Shown one piece after another: positions 14,501-51,990 of a stretch of DNA of 64,000 nucleotides. Below the pieces are notes generated by a model that searched no databases, was not told the origin of the DNA, and worked only from the letters and a program-made list of their open reading frames with translations. Made by a program: the position numbers and the translations under genes. The stretch is from positions 3,608 through 67,607 of the forward strand of contig UZAN01040752.1 of the NCBI GenBank assembly GCA_900618425.1, in the 5' to 3' direction. This DNA is from Echinostoma caproni (lineage: Eukaryota; Platyhelminthes; Trematoda; Plagiorchiida; Echinostomatidae). Within the stretch, counting starts at the first letter, position 1. Every line of letters starts with the position of its first letter.

Positions 14501-17500
14501 CACCAAATCTGGTCTCATCATGGGTATTCCAAAAATCCCAGTTACAACCCAGTTCCAAAAGTGTAGGGTCAAGCAAACGTGGATCGACTAAGTAAGAAAT
14601 GTGTGGTGTGTATAGGGTTGATCACCGTTTAGACATTTGTCCGAAATGCAGGTTACGTGGTTAACAATGGCGGAAATACACAGTTAGGTTACCGTTAAGC
14701 AGCCCGTTTAGCAGACCCCCACACATCCAGTACCATTGAGGAAACGCCGAAACGTTCTCACGGTGACCGCTGATCCCGATCCATTTCAAATACAAACTGC
14801 GAGAATTCTCAGAGGAAACGTCTGGCAGTAAGATTCATCGATAAACAAAGGAAGAGATTGCACATTGTTTGTTTGTAAAGTGTTTCAATTTGCTAATATA
14901 GAAGGACAAACCCGTGAGTTTTTCAACCGTAATTTGGATATAGGTAGACCAGCTGCGATTACTCCCTTTGATAAAACCATGGCGCTTGATTGTGTCCACT
15001 CTACAAAAGAAACAGCCGTCAGTGCTCGAGGGCTTATTGGGGTAGGTTTAAATCGAACGAGTGAAGATAAACTTCACGCATTTAAATACGTTCAGACTAA
15101 GGTCTGATAGAGAGATGTCTTAAAGTGCAATGAAATTATCAGAACTGACACGTCGTTCCCATCCCTCTACAAGTTCACAATTACTCCAAATTTCTTCTTG
15201 CAAAAAAGCTTACTGGAATTTACCAATACTCTGTCTTGTACGTTTACTGACAAAGAAAAAGAGGGTTACAATGAAGTCTTAATTTTTGACTATGATATGT
15301 CCCGATGAATCTAAACATTTTCCTCATGAAATATGTTCTATTGCACGGTTGGTATATAGAGATTTATCACTGATATGTACGTTTCAGTGCTCGCAAAAGT
15401 TATGATACATACAATATTGTAAAGCAGAAGAATCAGACTGATCAGAAATAGATTGAAATAATACATAATCATTTACCTACTTATTAGGTTGGCAGGTATT
15501 GCAACAGATTAGTTCAAGAACGTCATCACTTCATTTTTAATGTTCCATCACCGTACTTGAGAAGCGCTGGAGAAAGGCCATTTTTTAAATGAGCTTATTA
15601 GCACTTTCTTAAAGATCGGGGTTACCGCAGTTTAGATATAATTCTTGTTGATGAATTATATCACTGTGAATGAAAGGTTTGTTGTTCCCATTGCGTATTG
15701 TAATCAACGCTAAACACAACTGGGCAACGGTAGCCAAAGAGTACGTGAAGAAATTATGAAAACCACAGAAATGACTGTATGGTAATAACTCAGTGGCTGC
15801 ACTTATTGTTTCGTATTCAAGAGCCATAGATCCTTGGAACCATTAGGTTTGACTTTTCCGACATTTATCAAACGAAACTGTGGAATGAAAATGACATCAT
15901 CTTTGTTTGCTTCGCCTTGTTCCTTACCCATCGTTTTAATCTCAGAGTTCAACGAAAGTTTAACACAGAAGGAGAACGTACCTTCAGGATATCTTAAATG
16001 CAGGTAGTCTAATGAGCAAGAAAGAATAGGAACCCCTTCTCAACCGTTTGTGTGCATCTCTCCAACTTGTTCAATTAGGCTGCTTTGTCATTCGAATGAT
16101 CTAGGTATCCGTCGATTCAGAGAATATTCAAGATATATCTGACCTAACGCAACACTATTTCTTGGGAGAAGATTCTTCGAGTTTTCACCACAAAAGTCGC
16201 CATTATATTTGTCCTTAAGTTCTTTGAAACAATTCTGTAGGAATGCATGTACTGATCGCTCCAATTTTTTTTTCGCACTGCAGGCGCGACACTGAGTAAA
16301 ATCATTGTTTTCCGAGGAGCAGCGGGTCCCTCAAAAGTTGTTTAATAAAATAGATGCTCTCATTTACGAACCCAAGGTTGTCCATAAGGCGATTTACTTC
16401 GTACCTAGAATTAGCTGTACACCAAGTTGTTGTCTACAAAACGAAATCTATTTATACACTCTATAGGTAGTAAGAGATTATTATCGTAAATGGACAGGTA
16501 ACAACGAAAGCATTATTAAGCCTACTCCGTCTTATTGTGCATGAATGATTTTGATGCGAAGAAATCGAAAGCTTAATGTGCATCTTAATGAGAGCTCCGT
16601 AAGCCTTTTTGAATAATCCTAATTTATCGGTTGATTGAAGCAAGAAGAATTGGTCAGTTTCAACTAACGTAATCGCAATTTGTGTAAAACCGTCACCATA
16701 AAAATCCCGGCGGGTAATCATCGAGGTAACTAAGACTAGAAACCAAAAACGTTGAGATTGTTACAAATAGTACTGGTCCTTTGATAAATACATAATTTCA
16801 GAAATGCAAACACCTCAACTTTGACCGATTGAGGAATCAAAGCCAGAGTCAAATGTTGGAGAAGGGAAGAACAAGCTTATCATTCGTCTGAGAATAAAGC
16901 AATGTTTTACTTAGCCAATTCGAAAGATGGAGAGAACCGATCAAATCATACAACAGCTACGCAGAAACTGTGGTTTAAATGACTCTGGAGAAAACTGTGT
17001 ATTGCTGCATAATTGGAAAAGTGATAGTAGAACGAGTAATGGAGAACTGGATTTGGGAACGTGGTAAAAAAGTATCGAATCATAACAAAAAACAAACTGG
17101 AAGAAGGCAGATAACCCTAATGAAAAACGCTGAATTTAAGCACATTCGATTGGGCAGTTGTAGATTACGAAATGAGTTAAATAGGCAGACCAGCAGGTCA
17201 CCGAAGAGAAAGCGAACGATAAGGTTAAAGTAGTAAATTTGCAATAAAACAGCGACCTAGTCGGGGTTTTGTGGAAAATGTGACAGTCGTTTGCATCAGA
17301 CGCGTTTTTGAAACGTTTTGTGAAATGCACAAGGCACATATCCTTATCCAACGCTGCCACATTATTTCATTCCTTAAAAAACGTGAATATATTCTTGACG
17401 CTGAAGCTGTATGAAAAGTGTCAAATAGCTTGATGATGCTGACACATCAATCAAAGCTTCTCCAGTCAACATGTGGTGCAGTGTGCAAACCCCACAAGTT

Positions 17501-17511
17501 CTTATTCAAAA
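14500..17511. other. Unassigned, no gene seen
   Basis: Short chance ORFs only (the longest, 86 residues at 16461-16721 minus, shows no family motif). No repeat structure was recognised other than AT-rich sequence. Confidence 0.35.
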
Positions 17512-17706
17512 GAGGAAATTCGTCGTGTATATGTCAAATGAAGGGTGAACGGAAAAGCTAGGAATTGCAGGACAGCTGTTTCTACCTGTTTGGGTCTCAT
17601 CAGCGGTGCGAATTCATCAACCCAACTGGGGATGGAACCCGGGGCCTCACCGGCAGAACGCAAGCATGCTACCCACTAAACCAGCGGACAGCTGATCAGA
17701 CCGTTT
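17512..17706 (-). repeat. tRNA-derived SINE with hammerhead-like ribozyme, minus copy
   Basis: On the minus strand, an A-box-like GCTGGTTTAGTGGGTAGCAT and a B-box-like GGGTTCCATCCCC are followed by GAATTCGCACCG and a hammerhead-like core, then a tail ending in TCATTTGACATATA. The match to the plus copy at 17872-18063 extends from GGTCTGATCAGCT at one end to CGACGAATTTCC at the other, so this is essentially a full element of about 195 bp. Confidence 0.82.
17561..17609 (-). ncRNA. Hammerhead ribozyme-like motif, intact CTGATGA core
   Basis: Minus strand: the conserved CTGATGA (plus 17597-17603) is followed by GACC, a CAAACA loop and GGTA (stem II, with a G-A mismatch beside the core), then GAAA. 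The self-complementary ACAGCTGT forms a short stem III, followed by the GTC cleavage triplet (plus 17571-17573). Stem I is weak in this copy (GCACCG against CTGCAA). The layout, including a stem III of three pairs, is that of the schistosome Sm-alpha hammerhead. Activity untested. Confidence 0.62.
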
Positions 17707-17871
17707 CACATTTTTTGTTTACACGATACAGCACAGTCCATCTTTGCGAGCTTGTTATAGGCCACAGACGTCGCTCACCGCAGCACAACCCTTCGGCGTC
17801 TTGACTCCGTTAGAAACTTTCACAACCTGACCACTTATTTCATGTGACTAAAGGAAGATTTGGTTTAAAAC

Positions 17872-18063
17872 GGTCTGATCAGCTAACCGGTGGCCGGGTG
17901 GGTAGCATGCTTGCATTTTGCTCGTGAAATCCCGGGTTCGATCCCCAGTTTGGTCGATGAATTCGCACCGCTGATAAGACCCAAAATGGTTGAAACAGCT
18001 GTCCAGTGCTTCTAGTTTTTCAGTTAACACTTCATTTGACATATATGCGACGAATTTCCCCCA
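17872..18063 (+). repeat. tRNA-derived SINE with hammerhead-like ribozyme, plus copy
   Basis: The A box GGTGGCCGGGTGGGTAGCA (about 17889-17907) and B box GGGTTCGATCCCC (17934-17946) are close to the polymerase III consensus. The body holds a hammerhead-like motif at 17965-18009 and ends near CGACGAATTTCC. It faces the minus copy across a spacer of about 165 bases, so a transcript through both could form a long hairpin. Confidence 0.85.
17965..18009 (+). ncRNA. Hammerhead ribozyme-like motif with paired stem I
   Basis: Stem I GCACCG (17965-17970) pairs with CAGTGC (18004-18009) at five of six positions. The core is CTGATAA (17971-17977; the usual CTGATGA has one change). Stem II is GACC/GGTT around a CAAAAT loop. 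GAAA lies at 17992-17995, the short palindromic stem III is ACAGCTGT, and the cleavage triplet GTC is at 18001-18003. The type I layout fits Sm-alpha hammerheads. The G-to-A change in the core would be expected to reduce or abolish cleavage. Confidence 0.7.
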
Positions 18064-19680
18064 TTGAAATTGAACCAAATCCTCCGTTACGTGATATGAA
18101 ATTCTTATTTCTTAATTAAGCATTGCAAAATCAACATTTATAGAAAATTTTTTTTCAACATCCCTGACTTCAGAATATTCCGATGATGATTTTTGATCTG
18201 GTTTGCCTACTGCGATGTGACGACAGTTTGTGCGTGGAGGCTAAAGGACTACGGGTCGTGGCTAAAGCATTTTGGGTTTTGAATAAGGATTACGGGTCGA
18301 GCCTAAAGGACTGTGGATTTTCGGCTGAGGCTCGATGGGGCAAGTTGTGGTCACGGCTAGTAATTCCTACTCGAATCAATTAGTTTCAGCTGGTTATAGT
18401 ATATTCAAATGGTATGGTGATTGAGACATTCATAGGCTCGACAAAATGGAATCTCGGCTTTAGGGATTTTGAGTAAACCGTATCTATCATTCTCTAATGT
18501 ATGAAATGGTTGGTGTTATGCGATCCGAAGTTCATTGTTTACTTGTCTTTCTATTTTGAATCCTTTGCATAATCCTTGTGGTTTTTTCTCTCCCCGATTT
18601 GTTGACCGTTAACATTTGCAGCTATTTGTTCTATTATGTTTAGGATGAAAATACATGCTTCCCAAATCGGTTGGCGTGAATGACTCTTAAACCATACTGT
18701 ACCACACTTCCGTTTGCCACAATGTCTTTCAAAATTTCTTTGTATGAAGTCACTTTTTGCTGTTTATTGTATATGTACTGTGAATGACAACCTGGATCAT
18801 CAAACAATAGCTTTCAAATAGAAAAGAATGAAATATCCCTTATTTTGTTTGATGATGGATGAGTACCAATACAATAATTGGGATGACAAAAGACACTCAT
18901 ACTCGTTCATATCTGGCTCTAAAGGTGTTTGTGTGTGTGCAGGTGGGAAATTGATCACGGTGTGGAATACTTAGGTGGTTACAAACGGGTTGAGAACGAT
19001 TTAGTTCGGTAGGTTGAAATGCATGCCTAAGTTTATTCTAAGCACACAAAAGAGATTGTAAACAACGAGATGATATGAGGACAGACCGAAGGAAATACAA
19101 GCCATTATGTCCCCGAGATGTTCATGGAATTTACTCAAACAAGGTTATCGGGTGCACTAAATAGAGCAATACACGTCGCACAAAAAAACTTTGTGTTTTG
19201 ATTGAAGACTAAAGAAACGAATTATGCAGCGACTTTAGGTTCAGACCTATTCATCTGGTTCTGTCATAGAAGCCAGGACCCAAACAGTTAGCATGTGGAT
19301 TCACAATCTCCTTACTGTGTGCCGAATATATTCGTTCAAGCACTCAAATTCTCCTGGCCCACCCAACAGATTATCCGCAACACGCATGAAACCACTTGAA
19401 CATTTTACATCGTGGTCAATTCAAAATGCATGCATATTCAGAGGCAGATGTGGGCGATTGATGACTTAACCTGTTATCCTCCTTTCTTGTGTTTGTAATT
19501 AGAATTAGTGTGTACATCACCAAGATTAGGAACAATTAAACCCGACCTTGCTCACCTCATTGAGTTTCTTTTTATTCTGTTCTGTGGCGCTATTTAAACT
19601 TTTGTTTATTTCAATGATGGTAGAGGATTCAGTTCGGATTAATGAACAGAGTAAATGTATCTTGAACCAAAGAGCTTGCA
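18064..19680. other. Unassigned; imperfect minisatellite at 18230-18350
   Basis: Around 18230-18350 the words CTAAAGGACTACGGGTCG, AAGGATTACGGGTCGAGC and CTAAAGGACTGTGG recur in an imperfect tandem pattern. Nothing else is recognised. Confidence 0.35.
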
Positions 19681-19681
19681 A

Positions 19682-19826
19682 CACTGCCTGCGTAAGTTTT
19701 TCGAGCTGGATGAGTCCCATCAATAATGCGAATTCATCTATCTCACTGGTAATCAAAGCATGGACTGCACAGGTGGAATGGAAGCGTACGAGAAAATTAA
19801 CCGCAGGACAGCTGATCAGACGGTTT
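19682..19826 (-). repeat. Degenerate SINE copy of the 17.5-kb family
   Basis: The minus strand aligns with the 17.5/17.9-kb SINEs. Anchors on the plus strand are GCGAATTCATC (19729-19739), GGACAGCTGATCAGACGGTTT (about 19806-19826) and ATGAGTCCCATCA at the position of the ribozyme core (TTGATGG in minus orientation). Both the tRNA-like boxes and the ribozyme are heavily mutated. Confidence 0.62.
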
Positions 19827-21610
19827 TTGTTTAGCGTATACTTGACGTATCACAGTAAACGTTTTTGACTTATTGCAGGCGTCATATCTCAGCACATCTC
19901 AGTACCAGCATCAAAGTTTGTGATTCAGTTGAAAACAAACGTAACCTGATCATTCTTTGTAATTGGATTTGGTTTTATGGTATTCAGTAGTTACCAGCTC
20001 ATGCTGTATTTAATCTGTACTCAAAAAGATTGACTAACAAATGTTCTAAACAAATGCAAAAATTTCGCTTTTATTAAGTACAGTCTAGGCATTAAAATCA
20101 AGAAAAACTGAGCAATTCTGCTTATAAACTAAACTCGAGTAAAGTTCCAGTTTCGTTTTTAGCAATCTATTCTTGGAATGATTAATTTTGAGGTTATGCT
20201 TTTCATTTCAATAGTATGACAATCAACTTTCTCATCGCAATCTATTAGAACCATGCCAACACAATTTGTGCATCAAACACACCATTGCTTGCGTGCGCCT
20301 AATGACTATTCAAGTGCTTGTTTGAATTTGCCCAGAAAAATGTAACCATTGTTTAGGACTCAAAAATGATAATTCAACCAACTGTCTTTCCAGAATTACT
20401 TGCCTACGTTTGCTTCGATAGTATTGCATGCTATGTATCAATAATATATCACGTGGTCCATTCAGTGCTCAAAATACAGAATCACAATACGAATACGATC
20501 TATATTCCACACTCGCATGCTATGATTGACGGAGGACACCCTGTCGCCAAGTATCTATGTATTTTGGACTTTTTGATTGAACCGTAACTACTAACATGTT
20601 TCCCCACAGGTCAAATTTAAAATTTCTGTGGATGACCGTGATTCACTGATTGCCGACTAGTTGTGTAAATTGATACATTATAACCGCTTATTAAGAATCG
20701 AGTATAGTTGGCACAAACGATCCTAAATATATGCATTTCGCATAGAGCAATTCCGTTTACCCCGTGATTTTTCAGTGTATCTTCCTATTGGAACTGTCAT
20801 TCTATTCTTCTTCGAATTTAACAGTTCTATGAGGTAAGCTGCGAGTGTGACATTTGTGAGATAATTCAAATTGGAAGCTTGCCAATTCGAATGGACTATC
20901 ACATGAAGGGCCACCTCAGATTGAAGTACATCTGCTCAGCCAGTTGCCGTGAAAATGCAGACTTGGCAAGGCTTCTGTTCTGCCAAATTCCGAAGGCACC
21001 AGTTTCTCATTGAAACTGTTCACATTGGCTTTTGTCTGGTAACGTTTTTCTGAGTTTCAGCGATACAAATTATAAACATAGCGATCGGTAAGCTAATTGT
21101 TGGAAAGTTTATGGCCTGTTGGTTGAAAGTCGCTTGCTGGGTAACACGTTCCTGTACTTTATCACAGTATGGCACACATCATGCCCGCTTTTCAAACTAA
21201 ATGAATTATATTAATTCGCCGGGTACAAATTTCTAAACCTGGAATGTACATAATGTAATCATATTAACCAGCCAAACTATTTTTTATGCATTCATAGTTC
21301 ATCAGATTGACGAGTTTTGTGACTGATAGCAGACTTCATCTTCAAACAAAAACTTCAGTTTATCCAGTCAGACGTACACTTGGAAGGGGTAGGACTCGCG
21401 CCTCTCTCTCTCTCACTAGGGCTAGTCACAAGTGCTTCTTTATCACACACATTTTGTTGCTATTTGAAAAATAAAATGGAATTCAGTCCAGATGCCTGAT
21501 AATGCATGAAAGTTCTGAGTTAGTGGTAGGCTTCTATTAGTGTTAACAGAAGTGTTAACGGAAGTTCGTACTGAAATGAAATCGAATAGGTCATTATCGT
21601 TATTCTAACC

Positions 21611-23312: not shown

Positions 23313-24419
23313 TCACATACACATAGACGCTCCATTTTCCTGTTGACGACATTTCATGACATTTGTTCGTGTCCGTCTTAATCCATTCACAAGGTTTGTT
23401 TTTATCAGCTGTATCGCATGATTGTTCTTCACAGCACAACATCGTTTTGAACAACTCTTCCACTGAGTTCGCATGGAGTATCTCAACTGTTTCATTGTGG
23501 CGATTTGAAGAAACGGGTTCAAACTGGAGCACATAGCTGCAAAAAACAAGAAATACATGCGACATGTAGAATTGAAGCTGAAATTAACCACTTTGGCTGC
23601 ATCCAAAGCGGTTAGGATGATGGTGATTGCCTCTACCGTGATCAGTTCAATCATAATAATTGTGGCACTGAGGAACATTTTCCGTTGCACAGTGACGACC
23701 GCATTCGTTGCAGAGTCTGTGCGCGCGGTCGTTTGCGATTCTTGTTTCCTGCATGGGTGACATTTACAAAAACCGAACACATTGATGATCTTCAATCGAT
23801 GTAATTTGTATATTACCGCAATATTTAGTAAAATCATCACTAGCATTGGTACTGCCAAGCGAAGAACAGTTTCGACAATGTTCAGTGTTTGAGAGTTTAT
23901 CGACAGTACTCTGGGCTTACAAAGCCCGTCGATGAACGTTACGCTTATCAGGCGTATTGCCGCGACCAGGGAAGAGTATATAATGCCGGCAGTGAAACAA
24001 ATTACCATGTACCGTTTTACATACAGGCGGTATGTGTTCGGGTAATGGACAGCCCAAAAACGATCGGCAGCCTGTGCTGCAAAGTTGCACAACATTAGTA
24101 AACGGCACAGTCTAATGGCGAATCCACTTCGTTGCAGAAAACAATCACCGACACTGTTGATAATTGGGAGAGAATTGGGTTGATAGATACCAGAGGCCAT
24201 TGAACTTAGTATGGTTACACAAAGAGCAGCTTCAAGTATATTCTGGACGTACAACAAACACTTCGATAGAGGTGAATTGATTCGCGTACGAATAAAACAT
24301 AAGATAATGAGTAAATTGAGTAACACTCCAAGAGAAATGAATGTACAAATGATGTAGATTCCCAAATCATTGTTAAGAGAATATGCGGTAGTGCTGGAAG
24401 CATTAAGGGTTGTGTTCAT
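23313..24419 (-). CDS. Rhodopsin-like GPCR, flatworm orphan (PROF1-like), copy 1
   Basis: A 368-residue single-exon seven-helix receptor, expected in the plasma membrane and signalling through G proteins. The first ATG in frame is at 24419; the frame runs six bases further to a GTG but has no earlier ATG before a stop. Helix 1 (about 20-44) carries the conserved Asn35. Cys93 before helix 3 and Cys167 in the second outer loop can form the class A disulfide. Helix 3 ends ADRFWAV (119-121 DRF instead of DRY). Helix 5 holds Pro191, helix 6 lacks CWxP, and helix 7 has LNPFLQ (NPxxQ instead of NPxxY). Two N-terminal glycosylation sites (NTT, NAS) are present. The C-terminal tail is Lys/Arg- and Cys-rich. 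It is a paralogue of the receptor at 48.3 kb: 35 of 49 residues match from the helix-3 Cys to helix 4. Ligand unknown; the PROF1 assignment comes from memory of the family, not a search. Confidence 0.9.
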   Translation of the reverse strand: MNTTLNASSTTAYSLNNDLGIYIICTFISLGVLLNLLIILCFIRTRINSPLSKCLLYVQNILEAALCVTILSSMASGIYQPNSLPIINSVGDCFLQRSGFAIRLCRLLMLCNFAAQAADRFWAVHYPNTYRLYVKRYMVICFTAGIIYSSLVAAIRLISVTFIDGLCKPRVLSINSQTLNIVETVLRLAVPMLVMILLNIAVIYKLHRLKIINVFGFCKCHPCRKQESQTTARTDSATNAVVTVQRKMFLSATIIMIELITVEAITIILTALDAAKVVNFSFNSTCRMYFLFFAAMCSSLNPFLQIATMKQLRYSMRTQWKSCSKRCCAVKNNHAIQLIKTNLVNGLRRTRTNVMKCRQQENGASMCM

Positions 24420-25860
24420 TGGCACAAATGATACCTCAATGCGTTTTCAAATCCGGACCACCTATAAATAATCAAATAATCCAACGTCATGCAACGCACT
24501 GTTCGATTTTCCTTGAACTAACTTGCGAAGCATCAAACTGATGGAATGGTATAGGTATAATTTGGCAAGTGCATTTCATTGGTCAATGAGCTGTGGATTT
24601 TGTCCAATAATAATTAACGTCACTCCTTCACTTGCCTTACACTCATTCCATTGTATGCCTAAATGGTCAAGATTATATAAATGGCGAAATGGAACGTTTG
24701 ATTAGTACAAACAGGGTCACACCGATTCTTTGTTGATCCCGCAGCAAATAGAAACGGTATTCCTTAAAATACAGATTAAACACGAAAATGTTTCGTATGG
24801 TGCTGCAGTGAAACAAATAAATTGGAAAGAATTCTGCGTTTTGGTGTACATCTCTTGTTAAATTCTTTGAAACACTGTTTTTGAGAAAACATCCGATATG
24901 CCAATCTGAGGGTTGCAAGAATCCATTCTTCACTCAAGTTAACCGGCAATCTGGAAATTCCTATATCAATTGATGTGTTACATAAGGCTTACCTATTATA
25001 CACGTCGTATGGATGCGTTTAACAGCGAAGTTAACTGATACAGAATAATGACATTATGAGACTGTCGTACTAACAATAAAATCAATACAACCGCCAACAG
25101 AAACAACATCCAGGTTAGCGAAACTCTTTCACTGCTAGCATTTTACCTTACAACCTAAATTAAACTTGTTACCCCGCATATTAATGAACAATCGATTGTC
25201 ATGGGATGGTAACAAGAAAAAAATGAAGGAAAAGTCTCCACAAAAGTTATAACTGAAAATCTAAAAAAGTAATAAAATGTGCTCATCGCAATAGTTGTCC
25301 CTCTCTCACAGAATCTCAGTGCAACCAAACCCAAGGGCATTGATACTATTTCGAAACTGCATGTGTGTGCTGTGATAAAGTATTACAGAATTAACTTGAT
25401 TTTAGTTGATGAGATGTATATTGTATCTCCCGTTTTAACTAAAAAACACGAATAGGTAACTAGTAAGAACAGTATCTCAAATAAAACTGAGTTGGTTACC
25501 TTCACTGTAGTCTGAATAGCAAAGTGAAAACACCGACCACTTTCATTGGAGGGGTCCGCAGAAAAACTCTCGGGTTGGTAGCTGGATATGCAAACTGATG
25601 CACTTATTCCTTCATCAGCGTTTGACTGAATGAATAAACCACAAGCCCTATATGAATATAAAATTTTTAAGACACTCAGTCAAAATCCAGAGCACATCCC
25701 ACAGCATTTCTATCAAGAAACTGAGATAGAATGCAGTATGTATCACAACCGCATAGTTAAAACGGTTAACAGAAAAAAATTATCGATGATTGAATGCGTC
25801 GATGTCTTCAGTAAATGAGAACCGTTTCCTACTTTGTTATTGGTTTGCCAAGAGAAGCTA
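24420..25860. other. Upstream flank of receptor 1; no gene seen
   Basis: CATTGGTC and GTCCAATAA words near 24578-24612 and GATTATATAAATGG near 24669-24682 look promoter-like but face the plus strand, away from the receptor. No coding sequence is recognised. The 86-residue minus frame at 24673-24933 has no family motif. Confidence 0.3.
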
Positions 25861-28845: not shown

Positions 28846-28890
28846 GCACTGGAAAGTTGTTTCATCCTGTTTGAGACTAGTCAGCAGTGC
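28846..28890 (-). ncRNA. Hammerhead ribozyme-like motif, perfect stem I
   Basis: Minus strand: GCACTG and CAGTGC form a perfect six-pair stem I. The core reads CTGACTA (two changes from CTGATGA). Stem II GTCT/GGAT around CAAACA pairs at all four positions if two wobbles are allowed. GAAA follows, then ACAACTTTC with a TTC cleavage-type triplet. The sequence tracks the Sm-alpha hammerhead (GTCC, CAAATA, GGAC, GAAAC) closely. The core changes suggest an inactive descendant. Confidence 0.66.
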
Positions 28891-43599: not shown

Positions 43600-44600
43600 C
43601 GATTTGAGAAGTCAATCTGGCAAACAAGTTCGTTTTCGATGCCTTGTTCACTAACCAAATACAGCACTCTTTTATAGGTCACAAAATCATATAATTCAAG
43701 GAAATATAATAAGCGTAAATAATGTCTGTGTTTGTATGCATGTGTATGGATACCATGGATAATACAGTAAGGGGTGCACGAGAGTTCAAATCATGTCATT
43801 TGTACTGTCGAATGAATCAAATACATAAACGATTTGACGCACATTTAATAACTGCCTTTATGTCACTGTAGCGTTTGTGGCGGGCCATGGTAAATCCAGA
43901 GCTCTGACCGACTGTTTCTGAACGCACGTAGATGGACCTGACCGCTTCACTCATTCTAACACGATGCTCGGTTTCGACCAAATGAGCCGTGATCGCTGTC
44001 CCCCCGGGTCTCATCAATCCGCGACTGAGCCATCTGGGGTGGTGTTCTCGAATGTATTCGGCCAAGCGGCGGGTGGTACGACCAATGTAAGTGGTTCCAC
44101 AGGAATACACAAATTGGTGAATACAGAATGAGGCCATTTCCAACGGTAACTTGTCTTTCATCTGCAATGAGAGAACTGGTTTGGAAGTGTAAATGATGCG
44201 TAAATCAGCGACGTAGTATGTATTTCTGACAGCAGTCTGGAGACGCTTACTTATCATTTAAGAATAAGTGTCACCTTTAAAGCGAATGGATACATAAACA
44301 GGTTTCTTCTTAACCGTCATTTAGGGTTGCACTTTTGTGGTGACCTTCATACATTGTTGAATGATCTTATCCGGATATCCATTTTCTATGAAAGTCGTTC
44401 TAATTTTTCCCAGCTTTTCCTCGCATGTATCAGGCGAGCATATTCGCATCGTCCTGTTCAGCATACATCAAATCAATACCTTCTTTCGCGGTAGAGGTAT
44501 AAAACTGTGATAATTTGTGTACTGTCCTGTTCAAGTCTGCTTTCTGTGAATGCTACGTCGAAGAGACCCGTTTTCACAGCACGCGAGTAAAACATAGAGG
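43600..44600 (-). mobile_element. Penelope-like retroelement relic with GIY-YIG endonuclease
   Basis: The minus frame 44257-43817 reads RNTYYVADLRIIYTSKPVLS, DKLPLEMASFCIHQFVYSCG, TTYIGRTTRRLAEYIREHHP and then ITAHLVETEHRV, with the GIY-YIG endonuclease in good condition (TYIG, and the Arg-rich RTTRRL helix). Upstream of a stop lie IRFKGDTYS and ENGYPDKIIQQCM, the end of the reverse-transcriptase part, so the element extends to about 44600. About 200 bases beyond the stop is GAAAACGAACTTGTTTGCC in element orientation (plus about 43612-43632), the motif seen beside other Penelope copies here. Confidence 0.82.
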
Positions 44601-47885: not shown

Positions 47886-48307
47886 TATTATCGGGATATC
47901 AATAATACAGATTTGAATATTTCTGAGTGGCTGACATTCGAATTTTCCGCAGAAAATCTATCGAGAATACTAGTTGAGGTGGCTTGGATTTCAATGATAG
48001 CTTTACTTTTCATACTACACTCTGCTCAATACATATCACAAGTAAATTCTGCAGAATATACTTATCTTCAAAAGAACAACATGGTGGGACATGAAATGCG
48101 TGAGAATTACTATCCTTAATATTATCTTGTTGCCAACGTACACGATTGGATAAGGGTCCGGTAGACCGTGAACCAATCGGCTACAACCTTTTCGTACAAA
48201 ACATTAGTATTGGTCATAAATGTTTGATAACCTGGACCAGTTTCACTTATTAACATCTTCCCATCAAGTTCACCGTCTGCGAAAAGTCGTTTTGTGTGTG
48301 TACAGTC

Positions 48308-49342
48308 ATGGCAGCGTTGTTAAACCAAAGCAATAACATCACAAATCTTGTTCAAACTGACCCGCAGAGTACGGTACCTCAAATAATCATGAGTCTTCTG
48401 TTATCTTTGGGTATTTTATGCAACGCATACGTATTGTACGCCCTAATTAGCACAAAGATTAATTCCCCTTTGTTCAGGTTAACATTGTGTATCCAAGTTA
48501 TATTTGATGGATTTGCGTGTGCCGTGACGTTGAGTGCTATTCTCTCGGGTGTGTATGCAACGAATGCGGCGAACACCGTGATTAATCCAGTGGATTGTTA
48601 TTTGCAACGAAGCGGCTTTGCTCTCCGATGGGGTCGTCTAATGATGATGTGCAACTATGCGACCCAAGCAGCCGACCGATTTTGGGCTGTTTTTTATCCC
48701 GGTACATATCGTGTATACACCAAACGTTACATCACCATTTGCCTGCTGGTCATGGGTTTATATTCCACTGGTGTGGCAACTGTGCGTCCAATAACAGTGA
48801 TTTCGGTTGATGGAAAATGCAATCCAAGGCAACTGTTGTTAGATGGGTCCAAGTTGAATGTCATAGAAACGATACTTAGACTTGCGATCCCTTCCTCATT
48901 CATAGTCGTACTGAATTTTGTGGTCATCCGAAAATTGCATCAAACGGGCATAATCAATCTTAAGATTATTTTCGAATGTGTCACAAAAAGAAAAACGTCT
49001 GGCGGAGACCGGCACGGTGATGGAACTAATACAAATTCGGTAATTACGGTGCAACGCAAGATGTTTCTCTGTGCTGCAATATTAATGGTCGAATTGTCAC
49101 TATTTGAGGCGATTACCATCGTGCTCACAATTTTGGATGCTTATAAACTGGTTAATTTTGGTTTCAGTTCAACCGTTCGCATGTACTTTATGTTCACTGC
49201 TGCACTGTGTTCCGGTCTGAATCCAATATTGCAAGTGATCACAATGAAATCTTTGCGAAAAAGAATCGCGGCACAGTGGACTATTTGCATATCATACATA
49301 CGTGACAAAAGGAATCACTGCCGGTTTAATGTGGTTTGTTAA
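48308..49342 (+). CDS. Rhodopsin-like GPCR, flatworm orphan (PROF1-like), copy 2
   Basis: A 344-residue single-exon seven-helix receptor, paralogous to the minus-strand gene at 23.3 kb. The first ATG is at 48308 (GTCATGG, a good initiation context); the four upstream codons begin with GTG. The N-terminus has two glycosylation sites (NQS and NIT at residues 6 and 10). Helix 1 holds Asn39. Cys97 and Cys171 can form the class A disulfide. Helix 3 ends ADRFWAV (DRF at 123-125). Helix 7 reads GLNPILQ, with Asn305-Pro306 and no Tyr. RKMFLCAAILMVE at the start of helix 6 is nearly identical to the paralogue. The third inner loop is short and Lys/Gly-rich. An AATAAA lies at about 49578. Expected role: membrane receptor coupled to a G protein; ligand unknown. 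Confidence 0.9.
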   Translation: MAALLNQSNNITNLVQTDPQSTVPQIIMSLLLSLGILCNAYVLYALISTKINSPLFRLTLCIQVIFDGFACAVTLSAILSGVYATNAANTVINPVDCYLQRSGFALRWGRLMMMCNYATQAADRFWAVFYPGTYRVYTKRYITICLLVMGLYSTGVATVRPITVISVDGKCNPRQLLLDGSKLNVIETILRLAIPSSFIVVLNFVVIRKLHQTGIINLKIIFECVTKRKTSGGDRHGDGTNTNSVITVQRKMFLCAAILMVELSLFEAITIVLTILDAYKLVNFGFSSTVRMYFMFTAALCSGLNPILQVITMKSLRKRIAAQWTICISYIRDKRNHCRFNVVC

Positions 49343-50769: not shown

Positions 50770-51990
50770 CCACGGAGAATATTTTGAACAAAAAACCAGA
50801 GTGGCAAACAAGCTCGTTTTCTGTGAATCGTAGGTATGCCATTACATCGAAATATCTGTCACTAGTTGAGAACAAAGTTAATTGGCTCGAAAAAGGCCTT
50901 CCAAGTGGATCGAAAACGTCGTCAACCAAAAATTGTTGTTTTTTGGTTTTCTCTCGTTTTGTCTAATCCAAATATTTCCATACGGATCTAAGAACAAAGT
51001 TATCTTAGGAACATTAAACGAATGATCAACGATTACTAGAATTGATCTCCTTGTGACAAAGGAAGTCGGATTTACAATGATCCCATAGTTGTTTATACTC
51101 TCATTCAATCATCGAGATTACTCGGGATACGGTTTGTGTGTGGGACTCGTCAGGGAAGAATAAGCGCAATAACAAAGTGTTTATGAGCACGCGGAGGGAG
51201 ATTGAGCGGACAAGTTTTCATTTCTGTTGATGTTGGCCAACGACCGACACCGAACGAGTCTTGGTAATCAACTAAGTCCGTTATACAAGGAGCGGAAAGT
51301 CTCGCTCAAACTCACATTGTGATTTGATTCAACGAGGTGTGAAACCACTGAACCGGTGAGTGACTTAATCGTTCCGGTGTTCAGTGACGCAGGGTAATGT
51401 TCACGAATCGGTTTAGACAGTCGCCTGAGCAAATAACCGATATAAGTTATTCCACAGGAACAAGTGCATGTACCAAGTGGGGCTGAAAAGTGGAGAACGT
51501 TATATTTCAATCTTCAGCACTACTGGCCTCAACAAGAATACCAAATGGAGCTTTAACGAATAAAACGCTTTACAAATTGAGTCGGATAATCTCTATCTTA
51601 TGATCTCAGTTTATGTGTCTCCCTTGAAAGAAAAAAAAATGTAAGAGGACTATGTCTTAGCCTCGAGGCTCGGTAAACGTTTCTCTTTCTTCTGAATGAT
51701 ATTTTAACTGAACGTTTCAGATACGCATTACGTGCAAAGATCGATCTTACAAAATAGAGTTCATCGAATGGCGTGTCCTCACTGCTAAGCAACAAATCAG
51801 GTTTTAGTTAAGCTTAGGAAGTGGTCTTTTCATGTTGTTGTTCTACGCATCAAACGATGCGCCGATCCATTTCATAGATGAGTGAAGCCGAAATCCAGGA
51901 ACGGTAATTTGTTAACACATTCCATGTCCAACGTGAATGTCATGTTTTGATGCTCAATGTTAAACCAGCATGATATTTCGGTTAGGTTTG
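50770..51990 (-). mobile_element. Penelope-like retroelement relic with GIY-YIG endonuclease
   Basis: The minus strand encodes ELYFVRSIFARNAYLKR (51795-51598 frame), the end of the reverse-transcriptase part, then LGTCTCSCGITYIGYLLRRL and SKPIREHYPASLNTG, VVSHLVESNHNVSLSETFRS (51510-51268), a GIY-YIG endonuclease with its conserved TYIG. The two parts are in different frames. In element orientation the 3' flank has GAAAACGAGCTTGTTTGCC (plus about 50803-50822), as beside other Penelope copies. Confidence 0.78.

What the first reader, a model, noticed from the sequence alone, without database searches (positions are those of the whole stretch)
17512..18063. Head-to-head pair of tRNA-derived SINEs each carrying a hammerhead-like ribozyme
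Both copies have polymerase III A and B boxes followed by a hammerhead layout: CTGATGA or CTGATAA, a four-base stem II, GAAA, a palindromic three-pair stem III and GTC. The plus copy has a paired stem I (GCACCG/CAGTGC); the minus copy keeps the intact CTGATGA core. Established knowledge: schistosome Sm-alpha repeats combine a polymerase III promoter with a hammerhead. Inference: this fluke has its own family of such elements, and an inverted pair could also give a double-stranded transcript.
Basis: partly seen in the sequence, partly recalled or inferred. Interest (0 to 1): 0.8.

Follow-up and report, generated by a model that had tools for sequence, protein, structure and literature searches.

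The report
Two-ended scar of a ribozyme-bearing SINE
A head-to-head pair of short jumping elements, each carrying a hammerhead ribozyme, looks like the decayed scar of a single insertion, and its shape points to Penelope-type retrotransposons as the machinery that moves such ribozyme elements, which has been an open question.

Summary
In detail: window 17507-18101 is two head-to-head copies of a tRNA-like, hammerhead-bearing element. The new point is that the pair is one insertion.

The arms are one base apart; the 'spacer' is the rest of the minus copy's 363-bp unit, and one 8-bp duplication (TTCTTATT) flanks the whole pair. In this genome (very probably Echinostoma caproni) two such families each have over 1,300 near-exact ribozymes.

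In the fetched loci, opposite-strand neighbours were head-to-head in 25 of 25 cases. Outer ends fall at two sites about 32 nt apart. In 12 of 12 scorable pairs of the window's family one arm ends at the near site and the other at the far site; a second family gives 8 of 10. Published Penelope-like element (PLE) insertions have these marks: both cut strands extended, two adjacent start sites, inverted ends, a tail on one of them. PLEs are abundant here; both PLE copies fetched carry an inverted end.

Best reading: a metazoan-retrozyme SINE copied by a PLE from a circular or multimeric RNA. The window's own ribozymes look dead. PLE mobilisation of retrozymes was already proposed in print; this is structural evidence for it. 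Ribozyme activity and circular RNA were not testable.

The parts
17499..17506 (.). left copy of the target-site duplication TTCTTATT
17507..17865 (-). minus arm: one full 363-nt unit, outer end at the near start site (unit about 202)
17566..17610 (-). hammerhead of the minus arm: core CTGATGA intact, stem I unpaired
17629..17683 (-). B box (17629-17639, 1 mismatch) and A box (17672-17683, perfect) of the minus arm
17867..18101 (+). plus arm: units 2 to 235, outer end at the far start site
17884..17957 (+). tRNA-like part of the plus arm (ARAGORN: tRNA-Ala); A box 17891-17902 (1 mismatch), B box 17935-17945 (perfect)
17965..18009 (+). hammerhead of the plus arm: core CTGATAA (G8 lost), stem I paired with one mismatch
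18071..18101 (+). tail, present on this arm only, between near and far start sites
   Evidence: coordinates counted back from unit 235
18102..18109 (.). right copy of the target-site duplication TTCTTATT
28846..28890 (-). hammerhead of a family B copy (long 3' tail, no paired arm seen)
43817..44257 (-). fragment of a PLE GIY-YIG endonuclease frame (possible helper family)
   Evidence: Pfam finds nothing in it
50877..50991 (+). piece 87% like the 3' end of the PLE copy in L110

Best explanation
The pair is the decayed scar of one retrotransposition event. A non-autonomous element of the metazoan-retrozyme kind (tRNA-like promoter, type I hammerhead, 3' region) was transcribed into a circular or multimeric RNA. 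A PLE enzyme (reverse transcriptase plus GIY-YIG endonuclease) cut both strands of an AT-rich target. Each of the two 3' DNA ends primed a cDNA on the element RNA, one at the near start site (unit about 203), the other at the far one (unit about 235), and the two cDNAs were joined in the middle. Shown by sequence: short duplications around pairs, two preferred start sites, usually one of each per pair, unequal inner ends, arms longer than one unit, PLEs present. Inferred: that a PLE protein did it, that the template was a circle rather than a tandem transcript, and that the ribozyme made the template.
For: Duplications of 9 nt or more at 16 of 50 usable events (of 64) against 0.14 expected from permuted flanks; 8 nt or more at 8 of 20 paired events, where 1.5% of permuted flanks do. 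Opposite-strand neighbours within 800 bp: 25 of 25 head-to-head (15 family A; 10 family B). Outer ends of 82 arm records: 42 near, 35 far, 5 other. 12 of 12 scorable family A pairs have one near and one far end, chance about 2e-4; 3 of 4 scorable pairs with a small second arm; 8 of 10 in family B. Inner ends more than 15 nt apart in 15 of 15 pairs; 17 distinct arms or arrays longer than one unit. For at least one arm in 6 of 14 pairs no other sampled arm is closer than the partner. A PLE was shown to cut and extend both strands and to start at two adjacent internal sites whose interval is the genomic tail, with AT-rich targets (PMC11167929, Main text read). Rotifer PLEs carry inverted pLTRs, a tail on one of them, 8-10 bp duplications (PMC3846280, passages). 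PLEs abound here (151 matches listed); L110 has RT then GIY-YIG; both fetched PLE copies have an inverted copy of their own 3' end.
Against: No start-site sequence shared between the element and the two fetched PLE copies or the window PLE region was found. Of the two PLE copies, L109 has unequal outer ends, L110 equal ones, and neither shows a clear duplication (best shared words 4-7 nt). L059 (A), L037 and L080 (B) do not follow the one-near-one-far rule; L043 and L092 have one end outside both classes. The end classes were drawn after seeing the data. Arms of the window pair are not each other's closest relatives. A TTTT at unit 153 lies before the start sites, so a simple pol III transcript might stop too early. 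In the published PLE assay a ribozyme-dead RNA inserted as well.
Confidence: 0.74

Rival explanations
1. Two independent SINE insertions that happen to lie head-to-head.
For: Arms of the window pair are not each other's closest relatives in the sample, and the families are numerous.
Against: 0 of 25 opposite-strand neighbours are tail-to-tail; duplications around pairs; near/far complementarity; arms abut.
Confidence: 0.06
2. LINE-type twin priming: a LINE enzyme reverse-transcribed the RNA and the second DNA end primed inside it, inverting the 5' part.
For: Twin priming also gives an inverted 5' part and a duplication (recalled); a multimeric RNA could put a whole unit in each arm. LINEs are named as possible helpers in PMC11722881 (passage).
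Against: The outer end of the inverted arm should lie anywhere in the RNA, yet in 12 of 12 scorable pairs it lies at one of the same two start sites. [quoted passage not shown]
Confidence: 0.1
3. Self-primed fold-back copying (suggested for rotifer PLEs in PMC3846280): the first cDNA folds and copies itself.
For: It yields head-to-head inverted repeats (passage).
Against: Both arms would turn at the same unit position; inner ends are more than 15 nt apart in 15 of 15 pairs, and the outer ends differ.
Confidence: 0.05
4. A fixed inverted-repeat DNA transposon (MITE-like) with a ribozyme in each arm.
For: Inverted arms and short duplications.
Against: Inner junctions and lengths vary from pair to pair, and single, truncated and direct-tandem copies with the same outer ends are common.
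Confidence: 0.02
5. One reading: a functional ribozyme SINE pair selected as such, for example to make a double-stranded transcript.
For: The hairpin potential is real.
Against: The window copies are degraded, and pairs arise as a by-product of insertion.
Confidence: 0.03

Closest known systems
Metazoan non-LTR retrozymes (PMC7229834, passages)
   Same: Type I hammerhead in a unit of about 170-400 bp, direct tandem copies, duplications larger than 4 bp, no LTR.
   Different: tRNA-like promoter part, and frequent head-to-head pairs with two end classes; 'inverted' does not occur in that paper's main text. Circular RNA was shown there, not here.
SMalpha / Sjalpha SINE-like elements of schistosomes (PMC8490949, passages; original papers not held)
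   Same: SINE-like, with a type I hammerhead, many copies, in flukes.
   Different: Another fluke lineage; sequences outside the ribozyme were not compared; paired structure of SMalpha not known to me.
Penelope-like elements (PMC3846280 passages; PMC11167929 Main text)
   Same: Head-to-head inverted ends, optional tail of 30-40 bp on one of them, short duplications, AT-rich targets, hammerhead upstream of the start sites.
   Different: The element is a 363-bp unit with no helper protein seen, a full rather than minimal hammerhead, and a tRNA-like part.

Membership tests
Type I hammerhead ribozyme (RF00163) | curated score of 34 bits, window copies | tested here: not met
   29.2 and 28.7 bits
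Type I hammerhead ribozyme (RF00163) | curated score of 34 bits, family members elsewhere | tested here: met
   49.9 bits in L048, L042, L055; 58.1 and 56.5 in L026
Type I hammerhead ribozyme (RF00163) | self-cleavage | not testable with these tools
   needs an RNA assay
Metazoan retrozyme | type I hammerhead in a short tandem unit | tested here: met
   363-bp direct tandem in L048; further arms longer than one unit
Metazoan retrozyme | G+C below 50% | tested here: met
   unit 49.6%, borderline
Metazoan retrozyme | expressed as circular RNA | not testable with these tools
   no RNA data; the circular fold of the unit is stable, z -4.7 against 60 shuffles
tRNA-derived SINE | tRNA-like A and B boxes | tested here: met
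tRNA-derived SINE | pol III transcription through to the 3' end | tested here: inconclusive
   TTTT at unit 153 precedes the start sites; no RNA data
tRNA-derived SINE | 3' end shared with a LINE | not tested
   no LINE of this genome was collected
PLE-mobilised element | head-to-head inverted ends with duplication | tested here: met
PLE-mobilised element | two adjacent start sites giving a tail on one arm | tested here: met
   12 of 12, 3 of 4, 8 of 10
PLE-mobilised element | start-site sequence shared with a PLE of the genome | tested here: inconclusive
   not found in two PLE copies and one window stretch; thousands of candidates not examined
SMalpha / Sjalpha | sequence homology outside the ribozyme | not tested

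The most novel reading that the evidence does not exclude
Both ends of a double cut are primed on one ribozyme-made RNA circle by a PLE dimer whose two halves each take a different one of the two start sites, so every paired insertion records the division of labour. The ribozyme's job would be to make a circle on which two reverse transcriptases can run without meeting an end.
Probability: 0.32. Interest if true: 0.85.

Novelty: new variant of a known kind. Interest (0 to 1): 0.63.

Why it matters
Papers seen here leave open which enzyme moves animal hammerhead retrozymes and name LINEs or, as the stronger candidate, PLEs (PMC7229834, PMC7761336, PMC11722881; passages). The end structure found here discriminates and favours PLEs, and it can be counted in any sequenced genome. 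It also gives in-genome support for the two-strand extension and the two start sites seen in vitro for one PLE. A tail on one of the inverted pLTRs was already described for PLEs; what is added is a count, in two unrelated ribozyme SINE families, suggesting that the two DNA ends usually use different start sites.

Tried and rejected
Chance neighbours, LINE twin priming, fold-back copying and a MITE were considered and ranked as rivals. Junction microhomology: 10 of 15 pairs overlap by 2 nt or more, but so do 43% of 400 simulated joins; no claim is made. A shared 3' sequence with PLEs: nothing convincing. Closeness of ribozymes to PLEs on contigs was only glanced at on a few contigs in the lists; no claim is made. 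Pfam misses the window PLE fragment. The GPCR-like frame was used to try to name the species: 2,031 candidates, none at E 0.001. Papers PMC108972 and PMC4209133 are not held. Paper searches: ('Penelope-like element', 'inverted', 'twin priming') 0; ('hammerhead ribozyme', 'head-to-head', 'retrotransposon') 0; ('Echinostoma caproni', 'hammerhead') 0. Absence in print is claimed only for these terms in that library.

Sampling to know: L079 and L080 (two of the ten family B pairs) were fetched because the list already showed two neighbouring places; both are in the counts. L039, L046 and L049 were dropped because they repeat other loci. Four tandem arrays (L048, L064, L066, L074) count twice among arm records.

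Full report
WHAT IS THERE. Rfam's Hammerhead_1 model finds 17965-18009(+) at 29.2 bits and 17570-17604(-) at 28.7 bits, E about 2e-4 in a 2.5-kb search, under the curated 34 bits. A third ribozyme at 28846-28890(-) passes the cut-off. ARAGORN reads a tRNA in the plus copy, and A and B boxes are there with at most one mismatch each. The plus copy has lost G8 of the core and the minus copy's stem I no longer pairs, so both look like relics (inference).

THE FAMILY. The genome (G000, 426.5 Mb, 12,689 contigs) holds 1,435 places within 3 mismatches of the 45-nt family A ribozyme and 1,378 for family B, 0 in both reversed-pattern controls; the patterns differ at 4 positions, so some places may be counted twice. 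Natural copies score 49.9 (A) and 58.1 bits (B). L048 holds family A in direct tandem and so defines a 363-bp unit: tRNA-like at 18-92, ribozyme at 100-144, cut after 138, then a 3' region. The stretch between the window copies is this unit continuing: the minus arm is about a whole unit (17507-17865) and the plus arm starts at 17867.

ONE INSERTION. The window pair is flanked by TTCTTATT on both sides. Of 64 events 50 have usable flanks; 16 of 50 share a word of 9 nt or more where permuted flanks give 0.14, and 8 of 20 paired events share 8 nt or more, which 1.5% of permuted flanks do (the word need not sit exactly at both ends, in data and control alike). So 12 of 20 paired events show no clear duplication. 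Neighbouring copies within 800 bp: family A 15 head-to-head, 5 same strand, 0 tail-to-tail; family B 10, 1, 0, two of these ten fetched because a list had shown the neighbours. In the list of 100 exact family A places, counted by eye, neighbours within 800 bp are 5 head-to-head, 3 same strand, 0 tail-to-tail.

TWO START SITES, ONE EACH. Outer ends of 82 family A arm records fall at units 186-220 (42, commonest 203) and 224-250 (35, commonest 234-235), 5 elsewhere; four tandem arrays count twice. Class limits were set after seeing the data. Of 15 pairs with a ribozyme in both arms 12 can be scored, and all 12 have one near and one far end; the other three are L042 (cut by the contig end) and L043 and L092 (one end outside both classes). 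With the observed frequencies chance gives 2.2e-4. Ten events (L042 again among them) have an inverted arm found by a looser search; 4 can be scored, 3 complementary, 1 not (L059). Family B, alike in the ribozyme only, gives 8 of 10 if a shared 3' extension of 100 nt or more is called long; L037 and L080 are both short (classes read from the output). Both family A ends lie near TGAAA motifs (units 199 and 230); the stretch between them is 73% A+C against 50% for the unit, a level reached by 10 of 363 windows.

MECHANISM. The outer ends are where copying began. Inner ends differ by more than 15 nt in 15 of 15 pairs, so the second arm is not a fold-back copy of the first. 21 of 84 arm records, 17 distinct arms or arrays, exceed one unit, so the template was circular or multimeric; 0 of 73 five-prime ends lie at the ribozyme cut. 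For at least one arm in 6 of 14 pairs no other sampled arm matches better than the partner; the window pair is not among them, nor are 7 others. This picture matches PLEs. A lizard PLE cuts and extends both strands and starts inside its RNA at two adjacent sites; the sequence between them is the optional 30-40 bp genomic tail; targets are AT-rich and the start lies in an AC-rich stem-loop (PMC11167929, Main text read). Rotifer PLEs carry inverted pLTRs, mostly head-to-head, a 31-bp tail optionally on one of them, and 8-10 bp duplications (PMC3846280, passages). Flanks here are 67% A+T against 59% in the background sample. No AC-rich stem-loop stood out in simple folds of this stretch.

THE HELPER. 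PLEs are plentiful: 151 matches to a PLE endonuclease fragment, 150 scored of 7,567 first-look candidates. Open frames are listed up to 671 aa, plus two far larger values that are probably runs of N (not checked). A Pfam search with GIY-YIG found only 5. Two of these five were fetched. L110 has an RT domain (E 4e-13) followed by GIY-YIG (5e-7). Both carry an inverted copy of their 3' end at their 5' side: L110 108 nt at 94%, L109 65 nt at 98%. L109's outer ends are unequal, L110's equal, and neither shows a clear duplication. The window holds a PLE endonuclease fragment (43817-44257) and a PLE end (50877-50991, 87%). No start-site sequence shared between the SINE and these PLE stretches was found: the main gap.

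SPECIES. An Echinostoma caproni database protein (P0001) is encoded without a difference over 206 of 206 residues at C10526, so the genome is very probably that fluke; the contig's name could not be checked, and a GPCR-like frame of the window found no homologue.

VERDICT. The elements are metazoan-retrozyme SINEs, a known kind. New is the scar: a recurrent two-ended insertion, usually with one near and one far end, which ties them to PLEs. The mechanism is inferred from genome structure alone; no RNA or protein experiment was possible.

Noticed in passing
window 28846-28890 (-): Family B hammerhead above Rfam's cut-off, with the long 3' tail and no paired arm; the only gathering-level RNA match in the window.
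   Followed up: partly
window 43817-44257 (-): Fragment of a PLE GIY-YIG endonuclease frame, closest to Echinostoma caproni proteins (69% and 86% identity over parts), missed by Pfam.
   Followed up: yes
window 50877-50991 (+): Piece 87% like the 3' end of the PLE copy in L110.
   Followed up: partly
window 19699-19958 (-): Possible much older family A copy, about 67% alike.
   Followed up: no
window 23313-24446 (-) and 48254-49342 (+): Two long frames that look by eye like related seven-helix receptors; the second has a weak Srx chemoreceptor match below cut-off and no homologue at E 0.001 among 2,031 candidates.
   Followed up: partly
L109 and L110, PLE 3' ends: TTGAWAAAGGCCTTCCAAGAGGGTCGAAAC looks by eye like a worn minimal PLE hammerhead but is not found by Rfam at E up to 1.
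   Followed up: partly
L042 1738-1860: The fresh head-to-head junction folds so well that it matches two microRNA families below their cut-offs: such scars could be mistaken for microRNA genes.
   Followed up: no
units 168-174 of family A: A few arms (L009, L036, L053, L092) end near unit 173-180, close to another CATTTG motif (units 169 and 195): perhaps a rare third start site.
   Followed up: no
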